64,000 nt of DNA from positions 26,680-90,679 of the forward strand of contig CAMFEK010000005.1 in the NCBI GenBank assembly GCA_945949395.1, in the 5' to 3' direction. The stretch is from an uncultured Clostridia bacterium (GTDB lineage: Bacteria; Bacillota; Clostridia; Christensenellales; Borkfalkiaceae). A program made the translations under genes and the position numbers. Positions 22,653 through 42,772 of this stretch are shown here, piece after piece (position 1 is the stretch's first letter; every line of letters begins with the position of its first letter). Under the pieces are notes generated by a model that saw nothing but the letters and a program-made list of their open reading frames with translations, did no database searches and was not told where the DNA came from.

Positions 22653-23300
22653 ATGTCTGATTATATGAGAAGATTGCCTGTATATTTATTGTTAGATTGC
22701 TCCGGCTCAATGTCAGGAGAACCAATTGAAGCTGTTCGTCAGGGCGTGAAAGCTCTTTTGTCTGAATTAAAAGGAGATCCTCAAGCGTTAGAAACGGCAT
22801 ATTTATCAGTTATTACTTTTAATAGTAGTGCAAGACAGGTATCGCCTTTAACTGAGTTAATGGCTTTTAAAGAACCTGAATTGAATGCTGGTGGAGCAAC
22901 TGCTTTGGGTGGAGCATTAAATGTCTTAATGGATTGCGTAAAAAATGAAGTGCGTCAATCTACGGCAACACAGAAAGGCGATTGGAAACCTTTGGTATTC
23001 ATTTTAACCGATGGTGCTCCAACTGATATTGAAACATTTAAAAATGCAATATCGAATTTGAAAAATATAAAAGTGGCAAATATTATTGCGTGTGCAGCAG
23101 GTGCGAATGCTGATACCACTTACTTGAAGCAGATAACTGAGAGCGTATTAATGATGAATACTCTTTCAGCTGGCGATATGGCTCAGTTCTTTGCTTGGGT
23201 TTCAGGTTCGATAAAGATGTCATCCAAGAGTATCGATGCAAAACCTGGTGAGGCTATTCAATTACCACCTCCTCCTCAGGGATTTGTTATTGTTCCATAA
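22653..23300 (+). CDS. terY: TerY-like vWA-domain protein (215 aa)
   Basis: A stand-alone von Willebrand A domain: MIDAS metal site DCSGSMSG (residues 15-22), GGATALGGAL (about 89-98), and FILTDGAPTD (about 114-123). This composition and length are those of TerY, the vWA member of tellurite-resistance/stress loci. The next two genes are a PP2C phosphatase and a kinase, exactly the 'TerY-P triad' described by comparative genomics of Ter systems. vWA/MIDAS proteins bind Mg2+ and assemble partner proteins. SD AAAGGAG/AAAAGGA upstream of ATG 22653. First gene of the long rightward series. Confidence 0.9.
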   Translation: MSDYMRRLPVYLLLDCSGSMSGEPIEAVRQGVKALLSELKGDPQALETAYLSVITFNSSARQVSPLTELMAFKEPELNAGGATALGGALNVLMDCVKNEVRQSTATQKGDWKPLVFILTDGAPTDIETFKNAISNLKNIKVANIIACAAGANADTTYLKQITESVLMMNTLSAGDMAQFFAWVSGSIKMSSKSIDAKPGEAIQLPPPPQGFVIVP

Positions 23301-23392
23301 AACATTACAACTCATTGTTTTATTCATAATATAGCTAAAACCCTATATGTGGCTTTAACAATGAGTTTATTTATTTTGATAAGGAGATTGTT

Positions 23393-25021
23393 TTGGATAT
23401 TACGAAAAAAACAGGGATTCAAATCGATAATACTGCAGAAAAAGCTGAGGGTTCTTTTGGAACGGAATTATCAATAGCGGAAATCTCTACAGGGTTTGTT
23501 ATAGATATTAACTCTAATCCTCAGGACTCAAAAGAGATTTGTGTGGCAAATGATTCAACGGCGCAGCATTTAAACGTAGAAAAAGTTGAACTGGTAAAAA
23601 AAGATTTGAAAGAGCCCAATCCAATAAATATTGCCCCGTCGACTGATGTGGATAAATTCGATGATGGACGCATAGTGATGACTGAGCAGGAAGGTGACTC
23701 CAAGGTTAATAAAGGAACCGTTGTGATTGGTGAAGTTGAGACAACGAAGAAAAACGAAAATACTCAGCCAGCTATAAGCCCAGAAAAACCTGTGGAAATA
23801 AAACGAGCAGCTCATTTAACGAATGATGAAGTAACAAATCATACGGCGGCGTTATGGAAATATAAGCCAATACCTCAAAATGAACCTGAACCGCATGAAG
23901 AGTATGAGTGTCTTGATCAGCAGCTGCCGGGTTGTCATATCATCGGAGCTTCAGTAAGAGGAAAAAAGCATAAGCACGAAGGAACCAATAGAGATGACTG
24001 GTTTGAAGCTGGTAATTTTGAAAATATAACCGTAGTAGTTGTTTCCGATGGGGCTGGATCAAAAAAATACTCAAGAATAGGTGCTAGAGTTTCTTGTAAA
24101 GCAGGATGTTCATATATCGTTAGTTGGTTTAGAGAGCATCAAGAACAGTTTGTTCAATTGAAAACAGGATTAAGTCAACCTTTACAAAGCGATGAGTTTA
24201 CATCATCTTGTAGAAGTTTGGTCGATTTATTACAGAAATCGACATATTATGCGTTTGATGAAGTAGATAAAGCGTATAAAAAAAGAGGTTTGAGAGAAGA
24301 GTATTCAAAGGTATTAGGAAGAGATTTAAAATTATCCGATTTTGCTGGAACATTCTTAGTAAGTATAATTATTCCTATCGAAGTACAAGGAAAGAAGGAA
24401 AAATTGATTTTATCTTGTCAAGTAGGCGATGGGTTAATAGTTGCAATTAATAGCAAAGAATCTTTTGTAAAAGCCTCAAAATTGCTGTGTGAGCCAGATA
24501 GTGGTAGCTTTTCGGGAGAAACAGACTTTTTAACATCTTTGTCTTCTAAAAATGAAAACTATTTGTTGACTAAAATGAGAGTCTCAAGAAGTGAAGCCGA
24601 TTATCTCTTAATGATGTCTGATGGGGTAGCGGATGATTATTTCCCAAATGAAACTGAAGCGAAAAGGTTGTTCTTGGATTTAGTTGTTAATGGAATCATT
24701 AAGCAAGAAGAATGGGAGGATATTATTCTTAAAAAAGACAATGTTGCTCTATTAAGAAAAATTCCAATCTCTGTAGCATATCCTTGGGTAAACAATCCCC
24801 AAAAAATGGTTGCATTGCAGTATGTGAATCGAATTGAAAACGCATTACCTATTAAACTTGAGGATTTGTGGACTCGAAAAGATATTTTAAATCTTGCATC
24901 ATCCGATGTTACTGGATTTGAAACTGCTATTGATGCTGCGGATAGATTAAAAATATGGCTAGATAATTATGTCGAAAGGGGATCATTTGACGATAGAACA
25001 TTAGTTATTGCCGAATTATGA
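23393..25021 (+). CDS. PP2C-type serine/threonine phosphatase, TerY-P triad (542 aa)
   Basis: The N-terminal ~180 residues are low-complexity, acidic and probably unstructured. From about 184 a PP2C domain follows with its metal-binding motifs: GTNRDDWF, VVSDGAGSKKYSRIGA (about 218), QVGDGLIVA (about 345), MMSDGVADD (about 408) and the final FDDRTLVIAEL (about 531). It should reverse phosphorylation by the kinase encoded next. Start is TTG 23393, 6 nt after SD AAGGAG; no in-frame ATG lies close. 92 bases after terY, 6 bases before the kinase gene. The long disordered N-terminus could be a phosphorylation target; that is inference. Confidence 0.9.
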   Translation: MDITKKTGIQIDNTAEKAEGSFGTELSIAEISTGFVIDINSNPQDSKEICVANDSTAQHLNVEKVELVKKDLKEPNPINIAPSTDVDKFDDGRIVMTEQEGDSKVNKGTVVIGEVETTKKNENTQPAISPEKPVEIKRAAHLTNDEVTNHTAALWKYKPIPQNEPEPHEEYECLDQQLPGCHIIGASVRGKKHKHEGTNRDDWFEAGNFENITVVVVSDGAGSKKYSRIGARVSCKAGCSYIVSWFREHQEQFVQLKTGLSQPLQSDEFTSSCRSLVDLLQKSTYYAFDEVDKAYKKRGLREEYSKVLGRDLKLSDFAGTFLVSIIIPIEVQGKKEKLILSCQVGDGLIVAINSKESFVKASKLLCEPDSGSFSGETDFLTSLSSKNENYLLTKMRVSRSEADYLLMMSDGVADDYFPNETEAKRLFLDLVVNGIIKQEEWEDIILKKDNVALLRKIPISVAYPWVNNPQKMVALQYVNRIENALPIKLEDLWTRKDILNLASSDVTGFETAIDAADRLKIWLDNYVERGSFDDRTLVIAEL

Positions 25022-25027
25022 TAAATT

Positions 25028-26527
25028 ATGGAATCCAAAAGAACAGAAAAAGCCACGCTTGTGGACGGATCAACAATTGAATATGTTGTAAAAGACAATC
25101 CGCCGAAAGGTGGAATGAAATATACGTACTTTACTCCAGACAAAAAATATGTTGTTCAATTTTTTAATGATCCAAAAAATGCTAACGACATAAATATACA
25201 CAAAAGACTTGAGGCTATTGTTGGTAAGTATAATCCAACGTTGTCGGAAGAAAAAGGTGGTTCAAGAGGAAATACGCAGCTTGCGGCAGATTATTTTTCC
25301 AGTCGTTTTTGTTGGCCGAAATCCCTTATTAAGAGTCCAGAATTTGGTATAGTGTGTCCCGCTTATCCTTCTAATTATTTTTTTAGTGAAAACTCAACTG
25401 ATATTGAAGGATACAAAGATATCTTAAAAGGGAAAGATAAGAAAAGTACATACTTTACATCTCCTAAACTCAGTAAATATTTAAAATCAGATGAGTTGGG
25501 TGATTTTAGAAGTATGTTAAGTTTGTCGATAAATTTGGCTCGTTCAATACGACGTATGCATCAGGCAGGGTTGGCACACTCGGATTTATCTTGCAATAAT
25601 GTATTAATAGATCCACAAAAAGGGACTTGTGTTGTAATTGATATAGACTCTTTAGTTGTCCCGGGACTATATCCACCGGAGGTTATTGGAACTTCGGGTT
25701 ACATAGCTCCTGAAGTCTTAGAGACAATGGAGTTGCCGATAGATGATCCCAATCGAAAGTTGCCTTCTTCTTATACTGATCTCCATTCGATGGCTGTATT
25801 AATATATGAGTATTTATTAAAAAGGCATCCCTTGAAAGGTCCAAAGGTGTATTCTACTGAATCAGCAGAAAAAGATGATTTTCTAGCTTTAGGTCCTAAG
25901 GCAACCTTTATAGAGAATCCAGTTGATAAAAGTAATCGCCCTAAGGACTTGACTTATACTATAAAAGATTTAGGACCTGAACTTGAAAAACTGTTTATTC
26001 GTGCGTTTGTTGATGGACTGCATAGCCCTAATGAGAGACCTACGGCGATGGAATGGGAAAAAGGACTTGTAAAGACTTGGGATATGTTATCTCAATGTTC
26101 GAATTCTAAATGTACACATAAATGGTTTGTGTTACATGATCCCCAAAAGCCTATCTGCCCATACTGTAAAACAAAAATAAAAGCTAAAGAAGTTGTTCGT
26201 TTGAAACTAAAAAGTAGAGTTAGGGGAAGAAATGGACAATGGATTGATGCTGGGGAAATCAACTGTTATGATAATATGCCTATATTTAAGTGGCATATAT
26301 ACTCAAACTGCTTCCCTGACGAAAAAGCTGAGAGAGATTTACAGGCTTCAATTCATTATTATCAGGGACAATGGATCTTTGTTAATAGAGGAATAGCTGG
26401 AATGCTTTCGCCTAGTGGTAATATCGTACCAATAGGTCAAGCGGTTTTATTAAGCGATGGAAGTTCTTTTCAAGCTTCAAATGATGAAAAGGGTTATTTA
26501 ATTGAAGCATCTATTACAAGATGGTGA
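25028..26527 (+). CDS. Protein kinase with C-terminal zinc ribbon, TerY-P triad (499 aa)
   Basis: Eukaryote-like kinase domain (about 15-345): a Gly-rich loop region (PPKGGMKYTYF), catalytic loop HSDLSCNNVLID (about 184-195), a DFG-equivalent IDIDSL and the APE motif IAPEVLE. After it comes a zinc ribbon, CSNSKCTHKW ... CPYCK (about 357-379), then a beta-rich C-terminal domain. Kinases with this zinc-ribbon tail are the hallmark third member of the TerY-P triad. The Gly-loop and DFG are divergent, but HxDxxxxN is intact, so activity is likely. No membrane helix, so it is a cytosolic kinase. Confidence 0.9.
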   Translation: MESKRTEKATLVDGSTIEYVVKDNPPKGGMKYTYFTPDKKYVVQFFNDPKNANDINIHKRLEAIVGKYNPTLSEEKGGSRGNTQLAADYFSSRFCWPKSLIKSPEFGIVCPAYPSNYFFSENSTDIEGYKDILKGKDKKSTYFTSPKLSKYLKSDELGDFRSMLSLSINLARSIRRMHQAGLAHSDLSCNNVLIDPQKGTCVVIDIDSLVVPGLYPPEVIGTSGYIAPEVLETMELPIDDPNRKLPSSYTDLHSMAVLIYEYLLKRHPLKGPKVYSTESAEKDDFLALGPKATFIENPVDKSNRPKDLTYTIKDLGPELEKLFIRAFVDGLHSPNERPTAMEWEKGLVKTWDMLSQCSNSKCTHKWFVLHDPQKPICPYCKTKIKAKEVVRLKLKSRVRGRNGQWIDAGEINCYDNMPIFKWHIYSNCFPDEKAERDLQASIHYYQGQWIFVNRGIAGMLSPSGNIVPIGQAVLLSDGSSFQASNDEKGYLIEASITRW

Positions 26528-26531
26528 TGAG

Positions 26532-26678: not shown

Positions 26679-26691
26679 TTTGGAGGAACAA

Positions 26692-29349
26692 ATGAAAATT
26701 ACAGGTTTAAATGATTCTCAAGTTGAAGAATCCAGAAAAAAACATGGAAGCAATCAATTAACAGAGAAAAAATCTGAAGGTTTCTGGAGTAATCTTTGGG
26801 ATAACTTCCAAGATCCTATGATTAAAATTCTTTGTGTTGCATTGCTTATTAATGTTGTATTTGCAATATTAGGGCAAGTTGCTTGGTATGAATCTGTTGG
26901 TATTGCAGCAGCTGTTATATTAGCAACTTTCGTTTCAACATTTTCTGAATATCGTAATGAAAGTGCATTTCAAAAACTTCAAGATGAAGCATCTCAGATT
27001 AAATGTAAAGTTTATAGAAACGGTGAAATTGTAGAAATTCCTATTGATCAAATCGTCGTAGGTGATTGTGTTTTATTGCAATCGGGAGATAAGATTCCGG
27101 CAGATGGATTAATCATTGATGGAACAATTCAGGTAGATCAATCTGTATTAAATGGTGAAACGAAAGAAGCATCGAAAAATGTCAAACCTGAAGGTTATAC
27201 TGACGATGATGCAAATACCGATTTTTTAAATGAGTACAAAGTATTTAGAGGTTCAGTTGTTTGTTCGGGTAATGCTGTAATGCAGGTTTCCAAGGTCGGC
27301 GATGGAACTGTTTACGGTAAGATTGCTAGCGAATTACAGTCCGATGATGATAGAGAAACTCCGTTAAAGTTAAAGCTTGGAAAGTTGGCTGATCAAATTA
27401 GCAAATTTGGTTATATTGGTGGTATAGCGATTGCTGTTGCGTTCTTGTTCCAACGAGTATTTGTTCAAAATGGATTCGATTTTGCCTTGATTGGAACGTA
27501 TTGTTCAAACTGGATGGTTCTTGTTAATGACGTCGTAGAAGCTGTTATGCTGGCAGTTATCATTATTGTAATGGCTGTTCCTGAAGGATTGCCCTTGATG
27601 ATTGCTATTGTGTCTGCACAAAATATGGGCAAAATGCTTAAAGATAATGTCTTAGTAAGAAAAGTTTCAGGTATTGAAACGGCAGGTAGTTTAAACATCT
27701 TGTTCAGCGATAAAACAGGAACAATCACAAAAGGTCAGTTGGAAGCTGTTGCATTCGTTGAAGGTAATGGTAAGGAACATAAAGAATATAAGTCAATTCC
27801 TGAAAAACTAGCAAAATTAGTTAGTTTGAGTGTCCTTTGTAACACAAATGCTGTTGTATCGGGCGAAGGGAAAAATGTTCATTTCGTTGGTGGTAATGCA
27901 ACGGAAAGAGCCATTATGGGTTTCGTTCCAATGGAACGTATCGAAGGTGTTGAGATTGGTGCTAATATTCCCTTTAATAGTAAAAATAAGTATTCTGCAA
28001 CATCTATAGACGGAAATAAGACTATTTCTTTGATTAAAGGTGCACCTGAAAAAATTCTTGAAAAGTGTTCATTCTATTACAACGAGAATGGTGAAAAGGT
28101 ATCCTTTGCTGGCGACTATACTTCAATTAATAAAAAAATTGATATGTTAGCAGGAAGAGCAATTCGAGTTTTGGCATTAGCTACTTGCGATAGCGTGATT
28201 GAAAATAATGAATTGCCTGTTGGTGAATGGACTTTAGTCGGTGTTATTGGTATTCGTGATGAAGTTAGACCTGAAGCAATAACTGCCATTTCAAAGGTAA
28301 AGCAAGCTGGTGTCCAAGTAATAATGATTACTGGAGATAGAAAAGATACCGCTATTGCAATTGCAAAAGAAGCTGGTTTGATTACATCCGAACAGGATAT
28401 TGTATTGACTTCTGATGAAGTTGCTGCGTTGTCCGATGATGAGTTAAAGAAAAAATTACCTAAGATTAGAGTTGTTGCAAGAGCTTTGCCTAGTGATAAG
28501 AGTCGTTTTGTGAATATTGCTCAAGAGTTAAATCTTGTTGTAGGTATGACTGGCGATGGTGTAAATGACTCACCTGCACTTAAAAAGGCAGATGTTGGTT
28601 TTGCTATGGGTGGTGGTACAGAAGTTGCAAAAGAAGCAAGTGAAGTTGTAATTCTTGACGATAACTTTAGTTCTATCGAAAAGGCTATCTTATACGGAAG
28701 AACCATATTTAATAGTATTAGAAAATTCATTATTTTCCAATTAACAATTAACGTTGCCGCTGTATTAATTTCATTTATTTGCCCTCTGCTTGGTATAGAG
28801 AATCCTTTGTCGATTACCCAGATTTTGTGGGTTAACCTTGTAATGGATACACTAGCTGCGTTGGCATTTGGTGGTGAACCTGCATTAGATAAATATATGC
28901 AAGAGAAACCTAAACGCAGGGATGAGGCAATTGTTAGTCCGTATATGTGGAGTTCCATTCTTGTTGGTAGTCTTTGGACTTTTGCTTTGAGTATGATTTT
29001 TATCCTCACTCCATTTGTCAAAGGTTTCTTTAGAGAAAGTTTGGATAATAGTTACCTTTTAACAGGTTATTTTGCATTCTTTATCTTTAGTTCTGTATTT
29101 AATGCATTTAATGCGAGAACAGATGAAATGAATTTGTTTAAAAATATTGGTAAGAACAAAGGATTCTTACAAATAATTGCTCTTATTGTTGTAGTACAAG
29201 TTCTTTTAACATATTTCGGTAGTGTTATCTTTAGATGCTTTGGATTGAACGTTACGGAGTGGATAGTAGTTTTAATTATGGCTTTCAGTATCATTCCTGT
29301 TGATTTACTTAGAAAAGCAATATTTAAATTGGTTTCAAAAAAGAAATAG
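26692..29349 (+). CDS. PMCA-type calcium-translocating P-type ATPase (885 aa)
   Basis: P2-type ion pump. Phosphorylation motif SDKTGTIT (Asp near residue 338), MAVPEGLPLMIA in helix 4 (ion site), KGAPE in the nucleotide domain, and MTGDGVNDSPALKKADVGFAMG (about 619). The C-terminal helices contain WVNLVMDTLAALAFG, as in Ca2+ pumps. Pattern and length match bacterial PMCA-type Ca2+ ATPases. It exports Ca2+ across the plasma membrane. ATG 26692 has SD GGAGG 5 nt upstream; the earlier TTG at 26680 is not used. Ca2+ ATPases recur in Ter loci, where TerD proteins bind Ca2+, so the pump probably sets the ion level they sense. Confidence 0.94.
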   Translation: MKITGLNDSQVEESRKKHGSNQLTEKKSEGFWSNLWDNFQDPMIKILCVALLINVVFAILGQVAWYESVGIAAAVILATFVSTFSEYRNESAFQKLQDEASQIKCKVYRNGEIVEIPIDQIVVGDCVLLQSGDKIPADGLIIDGTIQVDQSVLNGETKEASKNVKPEGYTDDDANTDFLNEYKVFRGSVVCSGNAVMQVSKVGDGTVYGKIASELQSDDDRETPLKLKLGKLADQISKFGYIGGIAIAVAFLFQRVFVQNGFDFALIGTYCSNWMVLVNDVVEAVMLAVIIIVMAVPEGLPLMIAIVSAQNMGKMLKDNVLVRKVSGIETAGSLNILFSDKTGTITKGQLEAVAFVEGNGKEHKEYKSIPEKLAKLVSLSVLCNTNAVVSGEGKNVHFVGGNATERAIMGFVPMERIEGVEIGANIPFNSKNKYSATSIDGNKTISLIKGAPEKILEKCSFYYNENGEKVSFAGDYTSINKKIDMLAGRAIRVLALATCDSVIENNELPVGEWTLVGVIGIRDEVRPEAITAISKVKQAGVQVIMITGDRKDTAIAIAKEAGLITSEQDIVLTSDEVAALSDDELKKKLPKIRVVARALPSDKSRFVNIAQELNLVVGMTGDGVNDSPALKKADVGFAMGGGTEVAKEASEVVILDDNFSSIEKAILYGRTIFNSIRKFIIFQLTINVAAVLISFICPLLGIENPLSITQILWVNLVMDTLAALAFGGEPALDKYMQEKPKRRDEAIVSPYMWSSILVGSLWTFALSMIFILTPFVKGFFRESLDNSYLLTGYFAFFIFSSVFNAFNARTDEMNLFKNIGKNKGFLQIIALIVVVQVLLTYFGSVIFRCFGLNVTEWIVVLIMAFSIIPVDLLRKAIFKLVSKKK

Positions 29350-29355
29350 TAATCT

Positions 29356-30000
29356 ATGAATTATAAAATATTATATCCAGGGGCTTATCCAGTAGTACAG
29401 TTTGATTTGGATTATGGTGACTCAATTAAGGCGGAAGCAGACGCAATGATTTCAATGTCATCAAATTTAGAAATAAAGGGCTCTGTGGATGGAGGATTAT
29501 TAAAAGGCATAGCAAGACGTTATTTGGGCAATGAAAGCTTCTTTTTTCAAACTATAACAGCAAATCGTAGTTCAGGAACAGCTATTTTAGGTCCTCCATA
29601 CCCAGGTGGAATTATTGATGTTCGCTTAGACGGAACTTATTCGCTAAAGGTTCAGAAAGATGGATTTTTAGCTGCAACTAAGGATGTTCAAGTTGATACT
29701 TCAATACAAAATCTTGCTCAAGGGATTTTTTCAAAAGAAGGATTTTTTGTGTTAAATCTCAAAGGCAAAGGCGTTGCATTCCTTAATAGTTATGGAGCTA
29801 TTCATATGCTAAACCTGTCAGCAGGAGAAGAGGTTTTGATTGATAATGGTCATTTGGTGGCTTGGCCAGAATATATGCACTATTCAATAGAAAGAGCAGG
29901 AAATAATATATTCGCAAGTTTAACTTCTGGTGAATGTTTAGTGTGTAGATTCCGTGGGCCTGGATTTGTATTAATTCAAACGAGAAAACCTTTAAATTAA
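29356..30000 (+). CDS. AIM24/TIGR00266-family protein (214 aa)
   Basis: An all-beta protein matching the TIGR00266/AIM24 pattern: FDLDYGDSIKAEADAMISMSSNLEIKGS near the start, ...GGLLKGIARRYLGNESFF, then TGTAILGPPYPG-like and GAIHMLNLSAGEEVLIDNGHLVAW in the middle (typically LxxGExxxVDxGxLVAf). Bacterial members are cytoplasmic trimers of tryptophan-RNA-binding-like fold found beside TerD genes; their biochemical role is unknown. Six bases after the ATPase, translationally close. Confidence 0.85.
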   Translation: MNYKILYPGAYPVVQFDLDYGDSIKAEADAMISMSSNLEIKGSVDGGLLKGIARRYLGNESFFFQTITANRSSGTAILGPPYPGGIIDVRLDGTYSLKVQKDGFLAATKDVQVDTSIQNLAQGIFSKEGFFVLNLKGKGVAFLNSYGAIHMLNLSAGEEVLIDNGHLVAWPEYMHYSIERAGNNIFASLTSGECLVCRFRGPGFVLIQTRKPLN

Positions 30001-30019
30001 ATAAAAAAAGGAGATATTT

Positions 30020-30613
30020 ATGTCAGTTAATTTGCAAAAAGGTCAAAAAGTTGATCTTAGAAAAAGTGGAAGCAATAGTGCTTTAAGAAAAGTTATGGTC
30101 GGTCTTGGTTGGGATGAAGTTGAGCAAAAAAGACATTGGTTTGCTCCTAAGCCTCAAGATATTGACTGTGATGCAAGTGCAATTCTTTGTAAAGGTGGAA
30201 AGTTGTTAGAAGCAAAGGATTTGGTTTTCTATAATAACTTACATCACTTTACAGGAACTGTTATGCATCAAGGCGATAACCTGACTGGTGCAGGTGAAGG
30301 TGATGATGAACAGATTTTTGTGGATCTTCAGAATCTTCCTAGTGATTATGATAGAGTTGTTTTTGTAGTAACAATCTATCAAGCTCGTGAAAGAAAACAG
30401 CATTTTGGATTAATTGAAAATGCGTTTATTAGAATTTGTGATGCAGAAACGAATGTTGAGATTTGCAAGTTCAATCTTTCTGAAAACTATTATGGTAAGA
30501 CAGCCATGATTGTTGGTGAAGTATATCGTTATGGTAACGATTGGAAATTTAATGCAATCGGACAACCTACAACAGATAATAGCATCACGGAAATGGCTCA
30601 AAGATTTATGTAA
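30020..30613 (+). CDS. terD: TerD-family Ca2+-binding stress protein (197 aa)
   Basis: TerD fold: MSVNLQKGQKVDLRK at the N-terminus, metal-binding DIDCDASAIL (about 47-56), VFYNNL, GDNLTGAGEGDDEQIFVDL (about 91-109) and VVFVVTIYQA. TerD proteins bind two Ca2+ through the D-x-D and G-D-D-E motifs and are induced in tellurite, acid and phage stress. Good SD GGAG. It has an insert between LGWDE and the DxD motif, and a C instead of the usual L between the Asp residues. First of three TerD-type genes in a row. Confidence 0.92.
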   Translation: MSVNLQKGQKVDLRKSGSNSALRKVMVGLGWDEVEQKRHWFAPKPQDIDCDASAILCKGGKLLEAKDLVFYNNLHHFTGTVMHQGDNLTGAGEGDDEQIFVDLQNLPSDYDRVVFVVTIYQARERKQHFGLIENAFIRICDAETNVEICKFNLSENYYGKTAMIVGEVYRYGNDWKFNAIGQPTTDNSITEMAQRFM

Positions 30614-30633
30614 TTAAATAAGGAGTATGTATT

Positions 30634-31224: not shown

Positions 31225-31247
31225 TATATACATATAACTGATGTGTT

Positions 31248-31294
31248 GGTGCATCAGAGAGAAGAGTTTATTTTTCTCTGATGCACCTCTTTTT
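31248..31294 (+). terminator. Intra-operon terminator after terD
   Basis: Perfect 13-bp stem GGTGCATCAGAGA (31248-31260) and complement (31275-31287), then TCTTTTT. It lies 23 bases after the terD stop and 7 bases before the next start, with no promoter evident between. Partial read-through or attenuation is implied for the downstream type VII genes. Confidence 0.85.
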
Positions 31295-31300
31295 AATATA

Positions 31301-32596
31301 ATGGGTAATGTTATTCAAAAATTATTAGACAATGTTAAGGATGGGGAAATAATACAATTGCCTGTTGGGGAATACATGGGACCATTTTATATAAGAAGAC
31401 CGTGTAAATTGATAGGTAATAAAACTACTTTATGGACAGAAAAAGGTAGTGTTCTAAATATTACTGCGAATGGAGTCTCTCTCGAAGGTATGAGAGTTGA
31501 GACAACAGGAGATTTGCAAGCATTAGAGGATATATCTATTGAGTGCGGACAGTATTCTTTTAGTGCTTATAATGTTGGAATATCTGGTAATGTAGGTGGC
31601 GATAATCTTGAGAATGTATGGGATTTTCCCAAATCCGTAGATTTAGGGAAGTTTACCTCGGGGAAAGAAAATACTTTTTACATTGAAGTATTTGCAAACA
31701 ATAAGGCTACTGTTACCTCAAAAATAGATGGTATTTATATTGAACCTAGGAACATAAAAAAAGGAATCAATAAAATATGCATAAAGACAGACAAGTTGAG
31801 AAATAGAACTTGTATATTTGGCGAGATATTAATAGAATCTAAGTTTATTAGACGTATTTATGTTTCGGGACAGGCTTTAGAGTCTGTACAAGAAAAAAAA
31901 GATGAATGTTTGTATTCATCTAAAAGTGAAATAAAAAGAACAGAGAAAAATATAATTTCGGAAAACATTCCAAAGATTGAGCTGGTTGATCAAACATATA
32001 TACCTGATGGTAATTCTTTAATAATGCCTGTTGTAGAAGAAAGTTGTAATGAAGAAGTGAAAGCTGAATCAATAATATCATTACAAAAAGGACAAAGAAT
32101 AGGGTTGAAAGAAAATGATTCGGAATTAAGAATAGTTGTAGAACATCAAGTTGTAGGTAACGTATCTGTTGATCCTTATCTATTTTTGGTAGATGAACGT
32201 GATAAAGTTAAAACGGATAATGATCTAATCTTCTTTGGAAATAACACAACACCGAATCAATCTATAGAAGTGTTTGAGCTAGAGGGGAATAAAACAGAAA
32301 CTTCGATAAAAATAAATAAAGTGGAATCTTGGATAAATAAGATTATCTTTGTTTTTTCTATATATCAGTCAAGTAAAAAGAAAGTGGATTTTTCTAGAGT
32401 AAAATGGACAAAAATTAGGATTTGTTCTGATGTATCTACATATGAGATTTATATTGATGATATAAAAGATGGACAGAGTATGATCCCTTTTGAAATCTAT
32501 AAATATAAGGGGCTTTGGAAACTAAGAGTAGTATCTTCAGAACTTCATAGTGATATAGAAAAGATTTGTGAGACTTATGGGGTCAATGTGGATTAA
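31301..32596 (+). CDS. Protein with N-terminal beta-rich domain and degenerate TerD domain (431 aa)
   Basis: Residues 1-~70 (VKDGEIIQLPVGEYMGPFYIRRPCKLIG, then LNITANGVSLEGMRVETTG) look like the rungs of a right-handed parallel beta-helix. The middle is beta-rich and then a Lys/Glu linker. From about 256 a TerD-like domain begins (ISLQKGQRIGL...IIFVFSIYQ...SRVKWTKIRI...YKYKGLWKLRVV). The Ca2+ ligands are lost: VDPYLFLV replaces the D-x-D motif and the GDDE segment is absent. It is probably a structural or decoy TerD module. Start taken as ATG 31301, after the terminator. No SD is visible; an in-frame ATG at 31241 lies inside the hairpin and is unlikely. Confidence 0.75.
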   Translation: MGNVIQKLLDNVKDGEIIQLPVGEYMGPFYIRRPCKLIGNKTTLWTEKGSVLNITANGVSLEGMRVETTGDLQALEDISIECGQYSFSAYNVGISGNVGGDNLENVWDFPKSVDLGKFTSGKENTFYIEVFANNKATVTSKIDGIYIEPRNIKKGINKICIKTDKLRNRTCIFGEILIESKFIRRIYVSGQALESVQEKKDECLYSSKSEIKRTEKNIISENIPKIELVDQTYIPDGNSLIMPVVEESCNEEVKAESIISLQKGQRIGLKENDSELRIVVEHQVVGNVSVDPYLFLVDERDKVKTDNDLIFFGNNTTPNQSIEVFELEGNKTETSIKINKVESWINKIIFVFSIYQSSKKKVDFSRVKWTKIRICSDVSTYEIYIDDIKDGQSMIPFEIYKYKGLWKLRVVSSELHSDIEKICETYGVNVD

Positions 32597-33548
32597 CAAA
32601 TATAACCATTACTACAATTTATTGACATTAGAAGAAAAAGAACTATACAAAAACTGTTATTTTTCAATAATAAACTATAGAAAATCATTGGAAGTTAGTA
32701 ATTTTTTAGAAAAGAATATTGAGAAAGTATTTAAGTATTTGGGACTTGATCATCCAGAGTTGTATTTTGTTGATTTTTGTTGTGTTAGAATAGCAGCTGG
32801 CATTTTTAGAAAAGAATTATTTTTTTCATATTCTTATGATATAAATGTGGTGAATTCAATTTCGATAAAAATAAAAGAAATTACAGACCTAATAATTCAA
32901 AAAGCGAGAAGCTTCGCAGGTGATTATGATAGAGTAAAGTATTTATATGACTATATTGTATGTAATATACGGTATGATTTTGATTCTATTTCAAGGCAAA
33001 GAACGGACAAGGTTTTTTATGAAGCTCACTCTATTGCTGGTCCGTTATTATCCAAGAAAGCTGTATGTGAAGGAATTGCAAAATTGTTTAAATTCTTATG
33101 CGATAAGTTGGATATTGAAGCTATCTGTGTAGTTGGAAAAGATAAAAAAAATGTTTCAGAAACATTGCATGAATGGAATATTGTAAAAATTGATGGAAAA
33201 TATTGTCAAGTAGATGCTACAGGTGATATTCAAGTTTATAGAGATAATCAAAAGTTATTATATATGTATTTTAATTTGACTGATGAAGAATTTTTTTATG
33301 ATCATTATTGGAATACTGCTGAAACTCCGAGTTGCTCAACAAGTAGTTATTCATTCTACCATAGGAGCAATTTTGAAATAAGGAACTTGTATGAGATAAC
33401 TGAAGCAATACAAAGGCAAATAAGATTAGGAAAACGAGAATTACTATTAAAAGTCATTTCAGATATTAACGATAATCAAGTTAATGAGGAAATTAAAAAA
33501 GCGTTTTTACTAATAATATTATATTACAAGGTTATTCGTACTCAATAA
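32577..33548 (+). CDS. Transglutaminase-like protein (323 aa)
   Basis: The cysteine-protease/transglutaminase core is visible: KAVCEGIAKLFKFLC (Cys near 162), LHEWNIVKIDGKYCQVDATGD (His near 197, Asp near 212). Together these give the Cys-His-Asp triad. The N- and C-terminal parts are unassigned helical regions. No signal peptide, so it acts in the cytoplasm as a peptidase or amidase-like enzyme. Start uncertain: ATG 32577 or 32586 overlap the end of the previous gene by about 10-20 bases, which suggests coupling. Confidence 0.8.
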   Translation: MGSMWINKYNHYYNLLTLEEKELYKNCYFSIINYRKSLEVSNFLEKNIEKVFKYLGLDHPELYFVDFCCVRIAAGIFRKELFFSYSYDINVVNSISIKIKEITDLIIQKARSFAGDYDRVKYLYDYIVCNIRYDFDSISRQRTDKVFYEAHSIAGPLLSKKAVCEGIAKLFKFLCDKLDIEAICVVGKDKKNVSETLHEWNIVKIDGKYCQVDATGDIQVYRDNQKLLYMYFNLTDEEFFYDHYWNTAETPSCSTSSYSFYHRSNFEIRNLYEITEAIQRQIRLGKRELLLKVISDINDNQVNEEIKKAFLLIILYYKVIRTQ

Positions 33549-33611
33549 AAATCTTTCCAGAGAAAAGGATTTATTTAATCGAGATAGTAAATCATATTTG
33601 AGGAGAATTAA

Positions 33612-38548: not shown

Positions 38549-38559
38549 GGAGACAAAAA

Positions 38560-38856
38560 ATGACAAGTGTAACTACGGAAGAATTGATCAGATCAGCAGA
38601 TTTGCTTGAGGAAAAAGTTGGTGAATACAAAAGCCAGTATGAACAGATGTATTCTGAAATTGACAATTTGAGAGTTTATTATAAAGGTCAATCGAGTGAC
38701 GCTTTTAATAATCAAATTTTAGGTTTTAGAAATTCTTTGGAAGAAATGGCGACTGTAGTAAAGAATTACATCGCATATTTGCGTTCGACTTCGCAGAATT
38801 ATATTTCTAATGAAGAAGCGTTAACTGAAAGTGCAAATAGTTTGAAGTCTATTTAA
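38560..38856 (+). CDS. WXG100-like secreted helical-hairpin protein (98 aa)
   Basis: Length and helix-turn-helix shape match the WXG100 family, but the signature turn is YYKG (VYYKGQSSDAFNNQI, about 47-61) instead of W-x-G. This type of substitution is frequent in partners of heterodimeric pairs. The next gene has the normal W-E-G, so the two likely form one dimer. SD AAGGAG 8 nt before ATG. Probable substrate or structural co-secreted component of the EssC system. Confidence 0.8.
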   Translation: MTSVTTEELIRSADLLEEKVGEYKSQYEQMYSEIDNLRVYYKGQSSDAFNNQILGFRNSLEEMATVVKNYIAYLRSTSQNYISNEEALTESANSLKSI

Positions 38857-38869
38857 GGAGGAAATCAAA

Positions 38870-39154
38870 ATGGAAATAAAAGCAAATTCACAGGTAATGA
38901 GAGAAAAAGCAGCCGTATTAAAGGAAATTGGTACTAAGATTGAGGCGTTGGCAGGCGAAATGAAATCTGAAATTAGCCGTTTGCAGACAACTTGGGAAGG
39001 TGAAGCTGCAGAATTATTGGTTGCAAGATTTAACGAATTAAATAACGCTTTCGAGTCTAGAAAACAAACCATTTACTCGTATGCAGATTTCTTAAATAAT
39101 GCAGCGGATCAGTATCAGGCACAGGAAAATGCCAACAGAGAGAGTTTAGATTAA
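38870..39154 (+). CDS. WXG100-family protein (94 aa)
   Basis: Classic ESAT-6-like protein: helix 1 (SQVMREKAAVLKEIGTKIEALAGEMKSEISRL), turn WEGEAAELLVARF (W near residue 42), helix 2 (NELNNAFESRKQTIYSYADFLNNAADQYQ). SD AAGGAGG 8 nt upstream. Directly behind the YYKG paralogue. Confidence 0.9.
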   Translation: MEIKANSQVMREKAAVLKEIGTKIEALAGEMKSEISRLQTTWEGEAAELLVARFNELNNAFESRKQTIYSYADFLNNAADQYQAQENANRESLD

Positions 39155-39205
39155 AAAATATCTCTATGGTTTTTGTATTGAAATCATAGCAAGGGAGGTG
39201 GATTT

Positions 39206-39502
39206 TTGAAAATCAATTATGATATAGAAAACACTGATTCGATAATACATTCCCTTTTTCAGACCATTCAAGAAATAGAAGCTCTTGATACGCAATTGTT
39301 GGCAGAATTTGATACAATATCGTCTATTTATAATAGTCAATCCGGGAAAGTAATGCTATCAAATTTTATACAAAATTATGAGAACTATATGAAAAGTTTT
39401 TCTAGTTTTGTAGATGCATTATCCGTTTTGTGTAACGTACACGGCTTATATACAGAATCTTTTAGTTTAATAAAGGAGGCAGTTATACAACTGAAGAACT
39501 AA
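39206..39502 (+). CDS. Small helical protein, probable type VII partner (98 aa)
   Basis: All-helical, with the size of a WXG100 protein and a possible turn at IYNSQSGKVMLSNFI (about 45-59), i.e. S-x-x-G-like in place of W-x-G. TTG start 39206, 6 nt after a strong SD (AAGGGAGGTGG). It stands with the 70-aa gene directly before the putative substrate. This is the arrangement of the small targeting partners (Lap-type) found upstream of LXG toxins. Assignment rests on size and position. Confidence 0.65.
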   Translation: MKINYDIENTDSIIHSLFQTIQEIEALDTQLLAEFDTISSIYNSQSGKVMLSNFIQNYENYMKSFSSFVDALSVLCNVHGLYTESFSLIKEAVIQLKN

Positions 39503-39503
39503 A

Positions 39504-39716
39504 ATGAATGAAAATTTAGAAAATCAAAAGAATAACTGTAATTATGTGTTACGACCGTATATTTGTTACGCAAAAGAAAATATTGATTTAGCATTGGATC
39601 CCGAAATTAAAGTTCCTTTGCAAGAAAAATTGGACGAAATACTCAATGATATTGATTCTTTTACTCAAACATTAGAACAAATTGACGTCATATTGGCGAA
39701 GTTGGGATACAAATGA
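39504..39716 (+). CDS. Small helical protein of the substrate cluster (70 aa)
   Basis: Predicted helical, acidic: LDPEIKVPLQEKLDEILNDIDSFTQTLEQIDVILAKLG. Starts 1 base after the preceding stop; its own stop is 1 base before the substrate start. I do not recognise a family; position suggests a targeting partner or chaperone. Confidence 0.6.
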   Translation: MNENLENQKNNCNYVLRPYICYAKENIDLALDPEIKVPLQEKLDEILNDIDSFTQTLEQIDVILAKLGYK

Positions 39717-39717
39717 T

Positions 39718-41010
39718 ATGACAAAGTTATATGTAAATCCAGATTATCTGGCGGAAGCGTATTCAGACATTGCTAGCTTTCAGGACTATCATGAGCAAAT
39801 TGTTGAGTATCAGAGGAATATTAAATCTGCATTTTTAACAAGTATTGATAACGAGGAACTTAGACAGTCTTTTACTAAGTGTGAAAATTTATTAAATGGA
39901 ATATCTGCTAAGGCTGAAGTGTTAAAAGAGTGTTTGTCTGAAATATATTCAATAACAGATTGGTGCAATGAAAACGTTCAAAATGAAATTGATTCAATTG
40001 CAGTTGCTGCTCAAGTTGGAACAGCCGTTACTGTGGCATCAACAACTAGTAATAATTTAAATACATATATTAGCAATATGCCACAAACGTCTGATACTGG
40101 TAAGGCATTAGCAAGTATAGCGTTGGCTACATTACCTTCTATTTCAGCCCTTGTTGAAAAATACGGAAATAATGCAAAGGCAACATTTAAAGTTGCAAAA
40201 GATGCTTTTTCAGTTGTTTCCAAATCTATAAAATTCGCAAAAGATAATAGCGAATGGATAGGTGTCAAAGTTAAAACAGATGGTACATACGCACATTTAA
40301 AAAATTATTCAAAGGGTTCAGGGTTAGCTGCTAGATACAAGTTAGATAATTATGCGGCTAAACGACCTAAAATTAGTAGTTCTCTGAATACTTTTGATAA
40401 GGTTATGATAGTCGCCAAGTGTGGTATAAACCTTGTAAAAGCTGGAAAAGGGATATATGATACTTGGACTGATGATTCAAAAACAACTGAAGAAAAAATA
40501 TATGATACTACTGCTTATGGAATTTGTGCGGCCGCAAGTGTTGCATTAACGGTTGGTGGTACAGTGGCCGGTAAGGCAATAACGACAGCAGTTTCAGTTA
40601 TGATACCAGTTCCTATAGTAGGTACTGCTGTTGGATTGGTCGCTGGTACGGTTGTTTCTGGGTTAATGGATGCTGCGGCTGAAGTAATGCTTTCTGAGAA
40701 AGTTGTTAATCAAGTAAGTGATAGTGTGGAAAAAACGGTTGGTGTAGCAAAGGCGGGAGCTGATGCTGTTTCTAATGCGACAGAGAAACTTAAGAATTCA
40801 GAATCTGTAGGAGATGCTGTTAAAAACACTGCAAATCTTGTTGGAACAGCAGTTGTAGCAGGAGCTCAGGTCGTTGCTACTGCAGTTACGGAAACTGTGA
40901 AAGTAGTTGGTACGGTTGTTACAGAGACGCTCAAATCGGTAGGTAACACGCTAAGCACGGCGGGAAAAACAGTTGCAAATGTTGCTAAAAAAATCTTTAA
41001 GGGGTGGTAA
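39718..41010 (+). CDS. Probable type VII secretion substrate, glycine-zipper C-terminus (430 aa)
   Basis: The N-terminal ~100 residues are a helical bundle like an LXG/WXG module (VNPDYLAEAYSDIASFQDYHEQIVEYQ...). Residues ~260-320 are strongly hydrophobic and Gly/Ala/Val-rich (AAASVALTVGGTVAGKAITTAVSVMIPVPIVGTAVGLVAGTVVSGLM), as in membrane-inserting glycine zippers. The last ~100 residues are Ala/Val/Thr/Lys amphipathic repeats (VVATAVTETVKVVGTVVTETLKS). This resembles membrane-active LXG effectors, but no known toxin domain is recognised. ATG 39718 is chosen over TTG 39682, which lies inside the previous gene. Immunity gene not evident. Confidence 0.65.
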   Translation: MTKLYVNPDYLAEAYSDIASFQDYHEQIVEYQRNIKSAFLTSIDNEELRQSFTKCENLLNGISAKAEVLKECLSEIYSITDWCNENVQNEIDSIAVAAQVGTAVTVASTTSNNLNTYISNMPQTSDTGKALASIALATLPSISALVEKYGNNAKATFKVAKDAFSVVSKSIKFAKDNSEWIGVKVKTDGTYAHLKNYSKGSGLAARYKLDNYAAKRPKISSSLNTFDKVMIVAKCGINLVKAGKGIYDTWTDDSKTTEEKIYDTTAYGICAAASVALTVGGTVAGKAITTAVSVMIPVPIVGTAVGLVAGTVVSGLMDAAAEVMLSEKVVNQVSDSVEKTVGVAKAGADAVSNATEKLKNSESVGDAVKNTANLVGTAVVAGAQVVATAVTETVKVVGTVVTETLKSVGNTLSTAGKTVANVAKKIFKGW

Positions 41011-41013
41011 GTT

Positions 41014-41712
41014 ATGAAATTCATGTTTACGAACTCGGAGTTATCATATCTTGCAAAACAATTGGGATATAATAAACTGTTGGGATTTAATCAATCATTT
41101 TTTTCAGAGCAAAAAGTGATTGATTCTCTTAAAGAGAAGAAATATATTGAAGAAGTATCAGGCTCCATCAAAATATCAAATAGCATAATTTTGCTTTTGA
41201 GTGGCTGGAGTAAGATGAATTATTCTATTCTGCGTTTAGATTATAGGGATAAGAATAATGCTTACTATACATTGGCATCGAAAGAGTTGATCTTACTAAT
41301 AGCTGACCTTGAAAACGAAATAAGTATTTGTATGTATGATTTTTCCATAGATAATATGGACTCTATCATAAAGACGTACTTAAAAATTCCAGAGGTAAGT
41401 GATTGCAAAGATTCTTATGTCGTTCCGATCTTTGACTTGAATATAAAGAATTTAAGCAATAAAGAGTTTGCAAGAAAAACAGGATTGTCAATTGAGCAGA
41501 TAGAAGAGATAGATGGTTTCTGCAATGATGATACTACGGGTATTCAATTTATCGTTCAATCAATTTCTGATGATGCGGGGATGATGTGTACTCTTTTCTC
41601 GAATGATAATGCTTTATTTATGTTTAAGGATATAACGGCCGGCGAAGTAAATAAGATGGTCATTGTGAAAGGCAACACGCAGGATATTATAGATAGTATT
41701 TATATTTTTTAA
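41014..41712 (+). CDS. Uncharacterised protein, possible EspG-like type VII chaperone (232 aa)
   Basis: Mixed alpha/beta protein with no signal or membrane segment. The N-terminal FTNSELSYLAKQLGYNKLLGF...EKKYIE looks like a winged-helix start. The rest alternates strands and helices and ends in a beta-rich part, the general shape of EspG-type substrate chaperones. That family is variable, so the match is only suggestive. It begins 3 bases after the substrate gene with SD GGGGTGG, and is followed by DUF4176. An immunity protein is an equally good guess from position. Confidence 0.55.
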   Translation: MKFMFTNSELSYLAKQLGYNKLLGFNQSFFSEQKVIDSLKEKKYIEEVSGSIKISNSIILLLSGWSKMNYSILRLDYRDKNNAYYTLASKELILLIADLENEISICMYDFSIDNMDSIIKTYLKIPEVSDCKDSYVVPIFDLNIKNLSNKEFARKTGLSIEQIEEIDGFCNDDTTGIQFIVQSISDDAGMMCTLFSNDNALFMFKDITAGEVNKMVIVKGNTQDIIDSIYIF

Positions 41713-41723
41713 AGGAGTAATAA

Positions 41724-41981
41724 ATGAAAGAATATTTGCCTATTGGTTCGATAGTATTATTAAAAAAAGGCAAGAAGAAGGTTATGATTTATGGAAGACG
41801 TCAGTCTAGAATAAATGAAAACCAAGAATTCGATTATATTGCTTGCTTGTATCCAGAAGGAAATATCAATGAAAACTATATGTACTTGTTCAATCACGAA
41901 GATATAGAGACTGTTGTTTTTAGAGGATATAGCGATATTGAAGAGGAAATCTTCATAAGCAAATTGAATAAGATGAAATGA
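41724..41981 (+). CDS. DUF4176-family protein (85 aa)
   Basis: Matches the DUF4176 pattern: YLPIGSIVLLKKGKKKVMIYGRRQ at the start, FDYIACLYPEGN in the middle, FNHEDIETVVFRGYSDIEEE near the end. DUF4176 proteins are known from type VIIb loci beside LXG toxin genes, where they act as targeting factors. SD AAAGGAG 9 nt before ATG; stop overlaps the radical SAM start (ATGA). Confidence 0.85.
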   Translation: MKEYLPIGSIVLLKKGKKKVMIYGRRQSRINENQEFDYIACLYPEGNINENYMYLFNHEDIETVVFRGYSDIEEEIFISKLNKMK

Positions 41982-42772
41982 GAATAGAGACTTTAGTCGT
42001 TCAAGTAACAAATCAATGTCCGTTTAATTGTTCGCAATGCTATGTCGAACTTGGCGAAAAATCTTTAACAATTGGGAACCTTCTTGATTTGAAAAATTTT
42101 GCGGTTAAAAATAATGTAAAAATGATTCAAATTACTGGGGGTGAGCCAATGGTTTACCCTAACATCGTTGAGGCTGTTCAATTGTTTTCGAGTAGTGGAC
42201 TTATGACCGTCATAGCAACTTCTGGATATTCTTTGAGTGTAAAAAGGTTAAAAGAATTAAAAGAGGTGGGATTGACGGCTTTGTGTATTTCTCTTAACGG
42301 GTTTAATTATAAAACCGATAGCTTATCGAGAAATACGTTTTTGTTTGCATATAATGCGATTAATTTGTGCCAAAGAATAGATATTCCCTACTTTATTAAT
42401 TTTGTAATTACAAAAGATAATTTTAAGGATTTAAAAGAATTAGCTGAATATGCGAAACAAAAAAATGCAACGGGAATAAATATTTTAAAGCCATTCGGTC
42501 TATTTTATAAAGAGAAAATTTTATCTGAAAGCGAGCTTAACAAATTAAGAGCGATGATAGAGAATGATGATTTTTATAGGGTTGAAAATTGTTACCGAGA
42601 ATATTTTTCTCTTTCTTTGCAAGAAAAGCCGATTTGTGAAGACGCTGGGGGAAAGAGTTGGTTTGTAAGAGCTGACATGAAATGTGCTGTCTGTTCAAAA
42701 AATCAAAAAGAATTATTTAGTCTTAATGAAATAGGGGATACCATTACGTTGGATGTGTGTCCTTTTTCCTAA
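41978..42772 (+). CDS. Radical SAM enzyme (264 aa)
   Basis: [4Fe-4S]/SAM motif C-P-F-N-C-S-Q-C near residues 14-21, then ITGGEPMVYPNIVEA (SAM-binding GGEP, about 52), typical of the PqqE/MoaA-like radical SAM fold. The C-terminus adds Cys residues (ICEDAGG...MKCAVCSK...DVCPF), possibly an auxiliary cluster like a short SPASM/Twitch domain. Start overlaps DUF4176 by 4 bases, so it belongs to the same operon. Substrate unknown: a secreted protein of the locus, or the nearby 58-aa Cys-rich protein, are candidates. Confidence 0.9.
   Translation: MRIETLVVQVTNQCPFNCSQCYVELGEKSLTIGNLLDLKNFAVKNNVKMIQITGGEPMVYPNIVEAVQLFSSSGLMTVIATSGYSLSVKRLKELKEVGLTALCISLNGFNYKTDSLSRNTFLFAYNAINLCQRIDIPYFINFVITKDNFKDLKELAEYAKQKNATGINILKPFGLFYKEKILSESELNKLRAMIENDDFYRVENCYREYFSLSLQEKPICEDAGGKSWFVRADMKCAVCSKNQKELFSLNEIGDTITLDVCPFS

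What the first reader, a model, noticed from the sequence alone, without database searches (positions are those of the whole stretch)
22653..42772. TerY-P phospho-signalling triad, Ca2+/TerD genes and a type VII secretion motor in one co-directional locus
Seen: vWA-PP2C-kinase, a Ca2+ ATPase, TIGR00266 and TerD genes, then EssC, an EsaB-like protein, WXG100 proteins, a probable substrate and a radical SAM enzyme, all on one strand with gaps mostly under 30 bases. TerY-P triads and Ter genes are known from stress loci, and T7SSb from Gram-positives. Their union in one cluster suggests that a calcium- and phosphorylation-sensing module controls secretion, or that secretion delivers the Ter response. 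EssC carries an N-terminal FHA-like domain, a natural reader for phosphothreonine from this kinase. The functional coupling is inference.
Basis: partly seen in the sequence, partly recalled or inferred. Interest (0 to 1): 0.85.

Follow-up and report, generated by a model that had tools for sequence, protein, structure and literature searches.

The report
Stress operon fused to secretion system
In one bacterium the genes of a known stress and phage-defence switch lie right beside the genes of a protein-secretion machine, and a second bacterium shows a similar union that seems to have formed separately, which suggests, but does not prove, that the switch controls the machine.

Summary
In detail: TerY-P triad, PMCA-type Ca2+ ATPase, AIM24 and three TerD genes are followed on one strand by a T7SS block (EssC, EsaB-like, two WXG100, effector cassette, DUF4176, radical SAM), on an AT-rich island beside mobile-element genes.

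The Ter block recurs in Bacillota, often continuing into a biosynthetic module (18 of 48 loci with TerD3). Of 76 kinase loci, one (G827) has a T7SS embedded in the ter operon right after TerD3. The two EssC are not sisters (AU p=8e-8), so capture probably happened twice.

In the T7SSe-like EssC clade to which both belong, five of five well-visible non-Ter members carry a kinase and PP2C; the two Ter-linked blocks carry none, and in the window's genome the triad holds the only PF13672 and PF00069 matches. This favours the triad as substitute phospho-switch.

Against: the window FHA has lost two of three phosphothreonine residues; a strong terminator separates TerD2 from TerD3; seven other genomes with both genes (398 sampled) keep them apart; 12 of 19 EssC neighbourhoods outside the clade show no kinase or PP2C. 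TerY-P with WXG100/FtsK is already published. New variant of a known kind; coupling plausible, unproven.

The parts
21840..22436 (-). serine recombinase (resolvase family) near the left edge of the AT-rich island
   Evidence: Pfam PF00239, 96.7 bits
22653..23300 (+). TerY-like vWA protein, DxSGSM motif present; 85% identical to G827
   Evidence: Pfam PF00092, alignment A7
23393..25021 (+). PP2C phosphatase; the only PF13672 match (E 0.001) in the genome
   Evidence: Pfam PF13672, genome search
25028..26527 (+). TerY-P protein kinase with C-terminal zinc ribbon, no TM segment by hydropathy; the only PF00069 match (E 0.001) in the genome; about 40-43% to triads on Gram-negative plasmids, up to 70% to Bacillota loci
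26680..29349 (+). PMCA-type Ca2+ ATPase
   Evidence: TIGR01517, 611 bits over cut-off 507
29356..30000 (+). AIM24 / TIGR00266 protein
30020..30613 (+). TerD1
   Evidence: Pfam PF02342, 234 bits
30634..31224 (+). TerD2
   Evidence: Pfam PF02342, 241 bits
31248..31297 (+). strong intrinsic-terminator-like hairpin plus T-run between TerD2 and TerD3 (17-pair stem by scan; -29.3 kcal/mol for the 86-nt stretch, z -5.3)
31301..32596 (+). TerD3: N-terminal domain plus TerD domain; refined start, no visible Shine-Dalgarno
   Evidence: Pfam PF02342, 94 bits; alignment with G827 TerD3
32586..33548 (+). transglutaminase-like protein, overlaps TerD3 by 11 bases (refined start)
   Evidence: Pfam PF01841, 34.8 bits
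33612..38297 (+). EssC: FHA region, two hydrophobic segments at 293-343, Walker A motifs in two ATPase domains
   Evidence: TIGR03928 979 bits
38294..38548 (+). EsaB/YukD-like small protein with ubiquitin-like fold
   Evidence: no Pfam hit
38560..38856 (+). WXG100 protein a
   Evidence: Pfam PF06013, 42.9 bits
38870..39154 (+). WXG100 protein b
   Evidence: Pfam PF06013, 48 bits
39206..39502 (+). small protein, Lap-like by position only (inference)
   Evidence: ORF and position; no family over cut-off
39504..39716 (+). small protein, Lap-like by position only (inference)
   Evidence: ORF and position; no family over cut-off
39718..41010 (+). candidate effector with a central glycine-zipper-like hydrophobic stretch
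   Evidence: hydropathy and GxxxG scan; no family over cut-off
41014..41712 (+). unknown; immunity or chaperone protein by position only (inference)
   Evidence: no family over cut-off
41724..41981 (+). DUF4176 protein, a family of T7SS effector clusters
   Evidence: Pfam PF13780, 107 bits; 50-51% to two G827 copies
41978..42772 (+). radical SAM protein of unassigned kind
   Evidence: 50 NCBIfam matches, the 25 shown all below their cut-offs

Best explanation
A minimal type VII secretion module (EssC, EsaB-like, two WXG100, effector cassette), of the EssC clade whose other well-visible members carry their own kinase and PP2C, was captured as cargo behind a Bacillota ter operon and now uses the TerY-P triad as its phospho-switch in place of a pair of its own. 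Shown: gene content and order; foreign base composition and absence of EssC from relatives; a second union right after TerD3 in G827 with a non-sister EssC; the lack of further kinase/PP2C genes in both blocks while five of five well-visible other clade members have them; and that the triad holds the only PF13672 and PF00069 matches in this genome. Inferred: TerY, TerD and the Ca2+ ATPase register metal, envelope or phage stress; kinase and PP2C set EssC or Esx activity, by phosphorylation or by direct docking on the EssC FHA region (as the pseudokinase EssB does in T7SSb); the machine then exports a membrane-inserting effector.
For: Families. G827: EssC starts 15 bases after TerD3 and the block is flanked on both sides by ter genes. 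EssC tree and AU test, window+G827 held together rejected, p=8.4e-8. 5 of 5 well-visible non-Ter members of the 8-row EssC clade (G095, G825, G897, G856, G863a) have Pkinase and PP2C within about 8 kb of EssC; three of them (G825, G856, G863a) also have a DUF6382-FHA protein, the TseJ architecture of T7SSe. Four clade genomes (G856, G863, G897, G890) have a TerY-P kinase elsewhere, and in the three of them that are well visible the T7SS still carries its own pair. G000: 1 PF13672 and 1 PF00069 match at E 0.001 and 1 FHA over cut-off, all in this cluster; in G827 the only other kinase/PP2C pair is prkC/stp-like, beside an rsgA-like gene (names by eye). EssC over cut-off in 0 of 60 relatives. 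GC 0.27-0.39 per kb against about 0.55 chromosome and 0.44 mobile-element genes. Other published TerY-P/WXG100/FtsK unions.
Against: Window FHA lost two of three phosphothreonine-site residues. Terminator-like hairpin between TerD2 and TerD3, found at 0 of 16 TerD2-TerD3 junctions of relatives (six hairpins at other junctions of three relatives). Linkage is rare: EssC in 1 of 76 kinase loci; 20 of 76 kinase genomes have an EssC, 19 of them not on the kinase contig. 7 other genomes with both genes in the phylum sample, 0 linked. Of 97 relatives of G827 only 1 has an EssC, with no Ter gene in the 1.5 kb seen on each side. Outside the clade, 12 of 19 EssC neighbourhoods show neither kinase nor PP2C by a motif scan that is known to miss some, so a T7SS without a linked pair is not odd in itself. 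The sixth other clade member, G890, shows neither in its 11.5 kb contig. Ter core genes are 46-85% identical to G827, TerD3, EssC, EsaB-like and WXG100 only 25-33%. The kinase tree does not place the window with G827.
Confidence: 0.4

Rival explanations
1. Chance accretion: the ter block and the T7SS are two unrelated cargo modules that landed side by side on a mobile AT-rich island, each working alone.
For: Independent occurrence is the rule; 0 of 7 double carriers linked in the phylum sample; terminator-like hairpin between the halves; ArdC and MobL mobile-element genes downstream; EssC neighbourhoods without kinase/PP2C are common outside the clade.
Against: A second case right after TerD3, embedded between ter genes with a 15-base gap, with a non-sister EssC; TerD3 stays on the T7SS side of the hairpin and overlaps the next gene; within the clade the pair is missing from both Ter-linked blocks and present in 5 of 5 well-visible others.
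Confidence: 0.35
2. Co-selected defence island without direct control: triad and T7SS both serve phage or rival defence and travel together, but are regulated apart.
For: TerY-P is reported as an antiphage system (passages in PMC7699616 and PMC10889362); WXG100/EssC-like modules beside TerY-P in CoCoNuT loci; mobile context.
Against: Does not explain the missing kinase/PP2C in both Ter-linked blocks of this clade.
Confidence: 0.2
3. The T7SS exports Ter proteins or delivers the Ter response to other cells.
For: Only adjacency.
Against: The Ter proteins match no WXG100 family; a separate effector cassette with DUF4176 is present.
Confidence: 0.03

Closest known systems
TerY-P triad / Bacillota ter operon (Anantharaman et al. 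2012, recalled; cited in PMC11090510 passages)
   Same: vWA, PP2C, zinc-ribbon kinase, Ca2+ ATPase, AIM24 and TerD genes in an order shared with relatives such as G634, G658 and G769
   Different: The HpcH/PRT/StiP/HAD module that follows TerD3 in many relatives is not on contig C5 here (rest of genome not searched); a T7SS takes its place
CoCoNuT type III-A and H. pylori TerY-P islands with WXG100 and EssC/FtsK-like ATPase (PMC11090510, PMC4978471, passages read)
   Same: TerY-P triad beside WXG100 and an EssC- or FtsK-like ATPase
   Different: The CoCoNuT ATPase lacks FHA and TM and only D2 is predicted active; here EssC has an FHA region, two hydrophobic segments and Walker A in two domains, plus EsaB-like and DUF4176, in a TerD/Ca2+ ATPase operon
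T7SSe (Garrett et al. 2024, PMC11217815; results and discussion sections read)
   Same: EssC with FHA, EsaB-like, two WXG100; the window's EssC clade holds members with kinase, PP2C and a DUF6382-FHA protein like TseJ
   Different: No TseD or TseF besides the triad, no TseJ; no TseI, TseH or TseK seen; window FHA degenerate
T7SSc (same paper)
   Same: vWA, kinase and PPM phosphatase beside a T7SS
   Different: TscC lacks FHA and TscD has a TM helix; here FHA is present and the kinase shows no TM segment
T7SSb
   Same: EssC over the TIGR03928 cut-off
   Different: No EssB over cut-off in the genome

Membership tests
TerY-P triad | TerY-like vWA, PP2C and kinase with C-terminal zinc ribbon, adjacent | tested here: met
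Bacillota ter operon | triad, Ca2+ ATPase, AIM24 and TerD genes in an order shared with relatives | tested here: met
Bacillota ter operon | HpcH/PRT/StiP/HAD module downstream | tested here: not met
   no match at E 0.1 in the window or the rest of contig C5; rest of genome not searched
T7SS (any) | EssC/EccC ATPase and WXG100 protein | tested here: met
T7SS (any) | EsaB-like ubiquitin-fold protein | tested here: met
   AlphaFold2 model, mean pLDDT 89; ubiquitin-like PDB matches, best E 5.8e-6
T7SSb | EssB (YukC) | tested here: not met
   best 12 bits against cut-off 27.4
T7SSb | EsaA and EssA | not tested
   none seen among the block's genes; no profile search of the genome
T7SSe | TsxC FHA with conserved phosphothreonine site | tested here: not met
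   Arg kept, Ser to Met, Asn to Gly in the window; canonical in G827 (site residues recalled)
T7SSe | dedicated kinase TseD and PPM TseF | tested here: not met
   only the triad's genes match PF13672 and PF00069 in the genome
T7SSe | separate FHA protein TseJ | tested here: not met
   only FHA over cut-off is EssC's; one further match of 14.7 bits below it
T7SSe | TseI, TseH, TseK membrane proteins | not tested
   none seen by eye or hydropathy among the block's genes scanned
T7SSc | TsxC without FHA; membrane kinase | tested here: not met
   FHA fold match; no TM segment in the kinase
CoCoNuT III-A EssC homologue | no FHA or TM; only D2 active | tested here: not met

The most novel reading that the evidence does not exclude
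A stress-gated T7SS subtype: a membrane EssC system of the T7SSe-like clade that has no kinase and phosphatase of its own and is run by the TerY-P/TerD/Ca2+ module, formed at least twice at the same slot after TerD3, with the FHA region of EssC docking the triad kinase.
Probability: 0.36. Interest if true: 0.75.

Novelty: new variant of a known kind. Interest (0 to 1): 0.55.

Why it matters
What the ter operon and TerY-P do beyond tellurite and phage resistance is still unclear, and what switches T7SS on in Bacillota is largely open. A T7SS that seems to use the TerY-P triad where its kin have a kinase/phosphatase pair would give the triad a concrete client and the T7SS a concrete stress input, both testable with purified proteins.

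Tried and rejected
Tried without result: EssC protein scan of genome contigs and viral contigs, no relative confirmed; kinase and kinase alignment in viral contigs, none confirmed; kinase against phage records, one hit of 45% coverage; effector against plasmids, none; terminator hairpin as a repeat in the window, single copy. Effector similarity between window and G827 by BLAST: none (E 0.071), so 'same effector' is dropped and only a shared glycine-zipper-like pattern is kept. An EspG-like reading of 41014-41712 found no support. A viperin reading of the radical SAM protein is not supported (43.6 bits against a cut-off of 180; PADLOC pVip 58.7 bits). Anantharaman et al. 2012 is not held: cited from recall and from PMC11090510 passages. 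Papers: PMC11217815 abstract, results and discussion sections read; PMC9600955, PMC10765036, PMC4978471, PMC11090510, PMC7699616, PMC10889362 passages only. That a TerD/T7SS union of this kind is not in print rests (listings) in an open-licence library only. Kinase/PP2C/FHA/vWA genes near EssC were first flagged by my own motif scan, which misses some (it missed the window's own PP2C); the clade members' genes were then confirmed by Pfam. After a check of the report I mended the GC range, the words 'usually' and 'only', and the 5fwh label, added G890, the out-of-clade neighbourhoods, the G827 relatives and the EsaB fold, and lowered the best explanation from 0.42 to 0.40 and the novel case from 0.38 to 0.36, with chance accretion raised from 0.33 to 0.35.
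Full report
What is there. Between 22653 and 42772 nineteen genes run on the + strand: TerY-like vWA, PP2C, a zinc-ribbon protein kinase, a PMCA-type Ca2+ ATPase, AIM24/TIGR00266, TerD1, TerD2, a TerD fusion (TerD3), a transglutaminase-like protein, EssC, an EsaB-like protein, two WXG100 proteins, two small proteins, a candidate effector, an unknown protein, DUF4176 and a radical SAM protein. Thirteen of the 18 gaps are under 30 bases. The vWA DxSGSM, kinase HxDLSxNN and DID, and PP2C Asp motifs are present in alignments with relatives (motif names recalled). EssC passes the TIGR03928 cut-off, has two hydrophobic segments and Walker A motifs in two ATPase domains. The EsaB-like protein models as a ubiquitin-like fold.

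Origin. Per-kilobase GC is 0.27-0.39 over 21-46 kb, against about 0.55 in the upstream chromosome and about 0.44 in the downstream genes, which include ArdC and a MobL relaxase; a serine recombinase sits near the left edge. None of 60 relatives has an EssC over the family cut-off, and none of 390 other genomes of the class matched the kinase at E 1e-20. It is most simply laterally acquired cargo. That the host is of Bacillota is inferred: same-phylum genomes G658 and G769 have contigs of the same length as records titled Bacillota and Peptococcaceae.

The Ter half recurs on its own. In a 398-genome sample of the phylum, TerD (E 1e-15) is in 23 and EssC (E 1e-100) in 19, own genome included in both. 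Seven other genomes hold both; the nearest pair is about 100 kb apart. In the EssC neighbourhoods fetched (17 of the 18 other EssC genomes; G645 only as two contigs of about 4 kb) no Ter gene was found, and in the TerD neighbourhoods fetched no T7SS gene. A scan of species genomes with a kinase alignment returned 76 loci. On one strand the triad is complete in 66 of 76; matches by locus were CaATPase 63 (many weak, probably other P-type ATPases), TerD3 48, HpcH 19, PRT 17, StiP 14, EssC 1. After the last TerD3 the next recognised gene on the same strand belongs to the biosynthetic module in 18 of 48, is EssC in 1, another ter gene in 3, and none is recognised in 26, nine of which show under 4 kb.

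The second case. That one EssC locus is L139/L240, contig SAAM01000007.1 of a Clostridia MAG (G827). EssC begins 15 bases after TerD3, followed by an EsaB-like gene, two WXG100, DUF4176, a WXG100-like protein, a 410-residue effector candidate and a second DUF4176, and then the ter operon resumes with HpcH, an unassigned gene, PRT, StiP and HAD. It is embedded in the operon, not at its edge. For MAGs with short contigs linkage cannot be excluded. Of 97 relatives of G827 one has an EssC, with no Ter gene in the 1.5 kb seen on each side.

One origin or two. On a 19-row EssC tree the window is sister to G095 (100/98) and G827 sits in the neighbouring clade with G825 and G897; holding the two Ter-linked EssC together is rejected (p-AU 8.4e-8; same grouping with 36 rows). 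The branches are long, and the test was made after the first tree had been seen. The kinase tree leaves the two Ter blocks close but unresolved. Of the genes compared, Ter core genes are 46-85% identical between the loci; EssC, EsaB-like, WXG100 and TerD3 25-33%; DUF4176 50-51%. Two captures at the same slot is the simplest reading; an old union with later EssC replacement, or one with losses, is not excluded.

Why control by the triad is plausible. The 8-row EssC clade holds six other members. Five are well visible (G095, G825, G897, G856, G863a), and all five have a Pkinase and a PP2C within about 8 kb of EssC, in G856 and G863a on the opposite strand. G825, G856 and G863a also have a DUF6382-FHA protein, the TseJ architecture of T7SSe in PMC11217815. 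The sixth, G890, shows neither kinase nor PP2C in its 11.5 kb contig, which holds pilus-type genes beside EssC. The window and G827 blocks carry none besides the triad. G856, G863, G897 and G890 were found through TerY-P kinases that lie on other contigs, so in the first three a T7SS not linked to the triad kept its own pair. In the window's genome (95.75% complete) the triad holds the only PF13672 and only PF00069 match at E 0.001, and EssC the only FHA at or over cut-off; other kinase or phosphatase families were not searched. In G827 the one further pair looks like prkC/stp beside rsgA (names by eye). Outside the clade, a motif scan of 19 EssC neighbourhoods flagged a kinase alone in 5, a PP2C alone in 1, both in one frame in 1 and neither in 12, so the argument holds for this clade only. 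Garrett et al. (PMC11217815) describe kinases and phosphatases as frequent in T7SSc-j and the T7SSb EssC FHA as binding the EssB pseudokinase without the phosphothreonine site, a precedent for docking without a phosphopeptide.

What speaks against it. The window FHA keeps Arg but has Met for Ser and Gly for Asn at the phosphothreonine site; G827 is canonical and the rest of the clade varies (site residues recalled). The FHA fold itself is supported. A 17-pair hairpin with a T-run (31248-31287) lies between TerD2 and TerD3 (-29.3 kcal/mol for 86 nt, z -5.3); none of 16 TerD2-TerD3 junctions in relatives has one by the same script, though three relatives have six such hairpins at other junctions. 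TerD3 has no visible Shine-Dalgarno. So triad and T7SS are probably not one simple transcript; a regulated attenuator is possible. No other hairpin of that strength was found on the + strand of the cluster.

What it does. DUF4176, two small proteins and a glycine-zipper-like protein resemble LXG effector cassettes in position (telD cluster in PMC9600955 passages; TelE and DUF4176 in PMC10765036 passages). The G827 effector candidate has an EspC-type N-terminus (25.8 bits, cut-off 23.5) and a glycine-zipper-like stretch too, but the two are not BLAST-similar. My best account is export of a membrane-inserting effector against neighbours, gated by the triad. The input (metal, Ca2+, envelope damage, phage) is inferred from what is known of TerY-P and TerD.

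What is known already. A TerY-P triad beside WXG100 and FtsK or EssC-like genes is reported for an H. pylori island (PMC4978471) and for type III-A CoCoNuT loci, where the ATPase lacks FHA and TM (PMC11090510, which credits Anantharaman et al. 2012). What I did not find in print is a membrane EssC system within a TerD/Ca2+ ATPase operon of Bacillota, its repeated formation, or the missing kinase/PP2C. I therefore rate it a new variant of a known kind.

Noticed in passing
window 48482-59440: A 3652-residue open frame; its first 1173 residues match MutS domain I (73.6 bits) and the text looks like a mobile-element methylase/helicase. With ArdC (59591) and MobL (62104) this suggests an ICE; the contig ends with the window, so its right border is not seen.
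   Followed up: partly
window 31238-31297: Strong terminator-like hairpin absent from the same junction in 16 of 16 relatives scanned; a short competing stem lies just upstream, so attenuation is possible.
   Followed up: partly
L257:346-948: A serine-recombinase-like protein resembling (by eye) the one at window 21840-22436 lies near the T7SS of G897, which could mean a shared way of moving T7SS blocks.
   Followed up: no
L044 and L045 (G095): The closest EssC relative has a kinase, a PP2C, a protein with a DxSGSM motif and an SPFH/zinc-ribbon protein around its T7SS: possibly a further phospho-regulated arrangement.
   Followed up: partly
window genome G000: Apart from the triad no PF00069 or PF13672 match was found, so a prkC/stp pair such as G827 has seems to be missing from this genome (95.75% complete).
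   Followed up: partly
window 47415-47828 and 47828-48118: Two adjacent small proteins that look like paralogues (by eye), of unknown function, just before the mobile-element genes.
   Followed up: no
L258 (G890): A T7SS of the same EssC clade sits directly beside pilus-type genes (RcpC/CpaB-like, T2SSE ATPase), like the Tad-linked T7SSg/h of PMC11217815 but with another EssC lineage.
   Followed up: no
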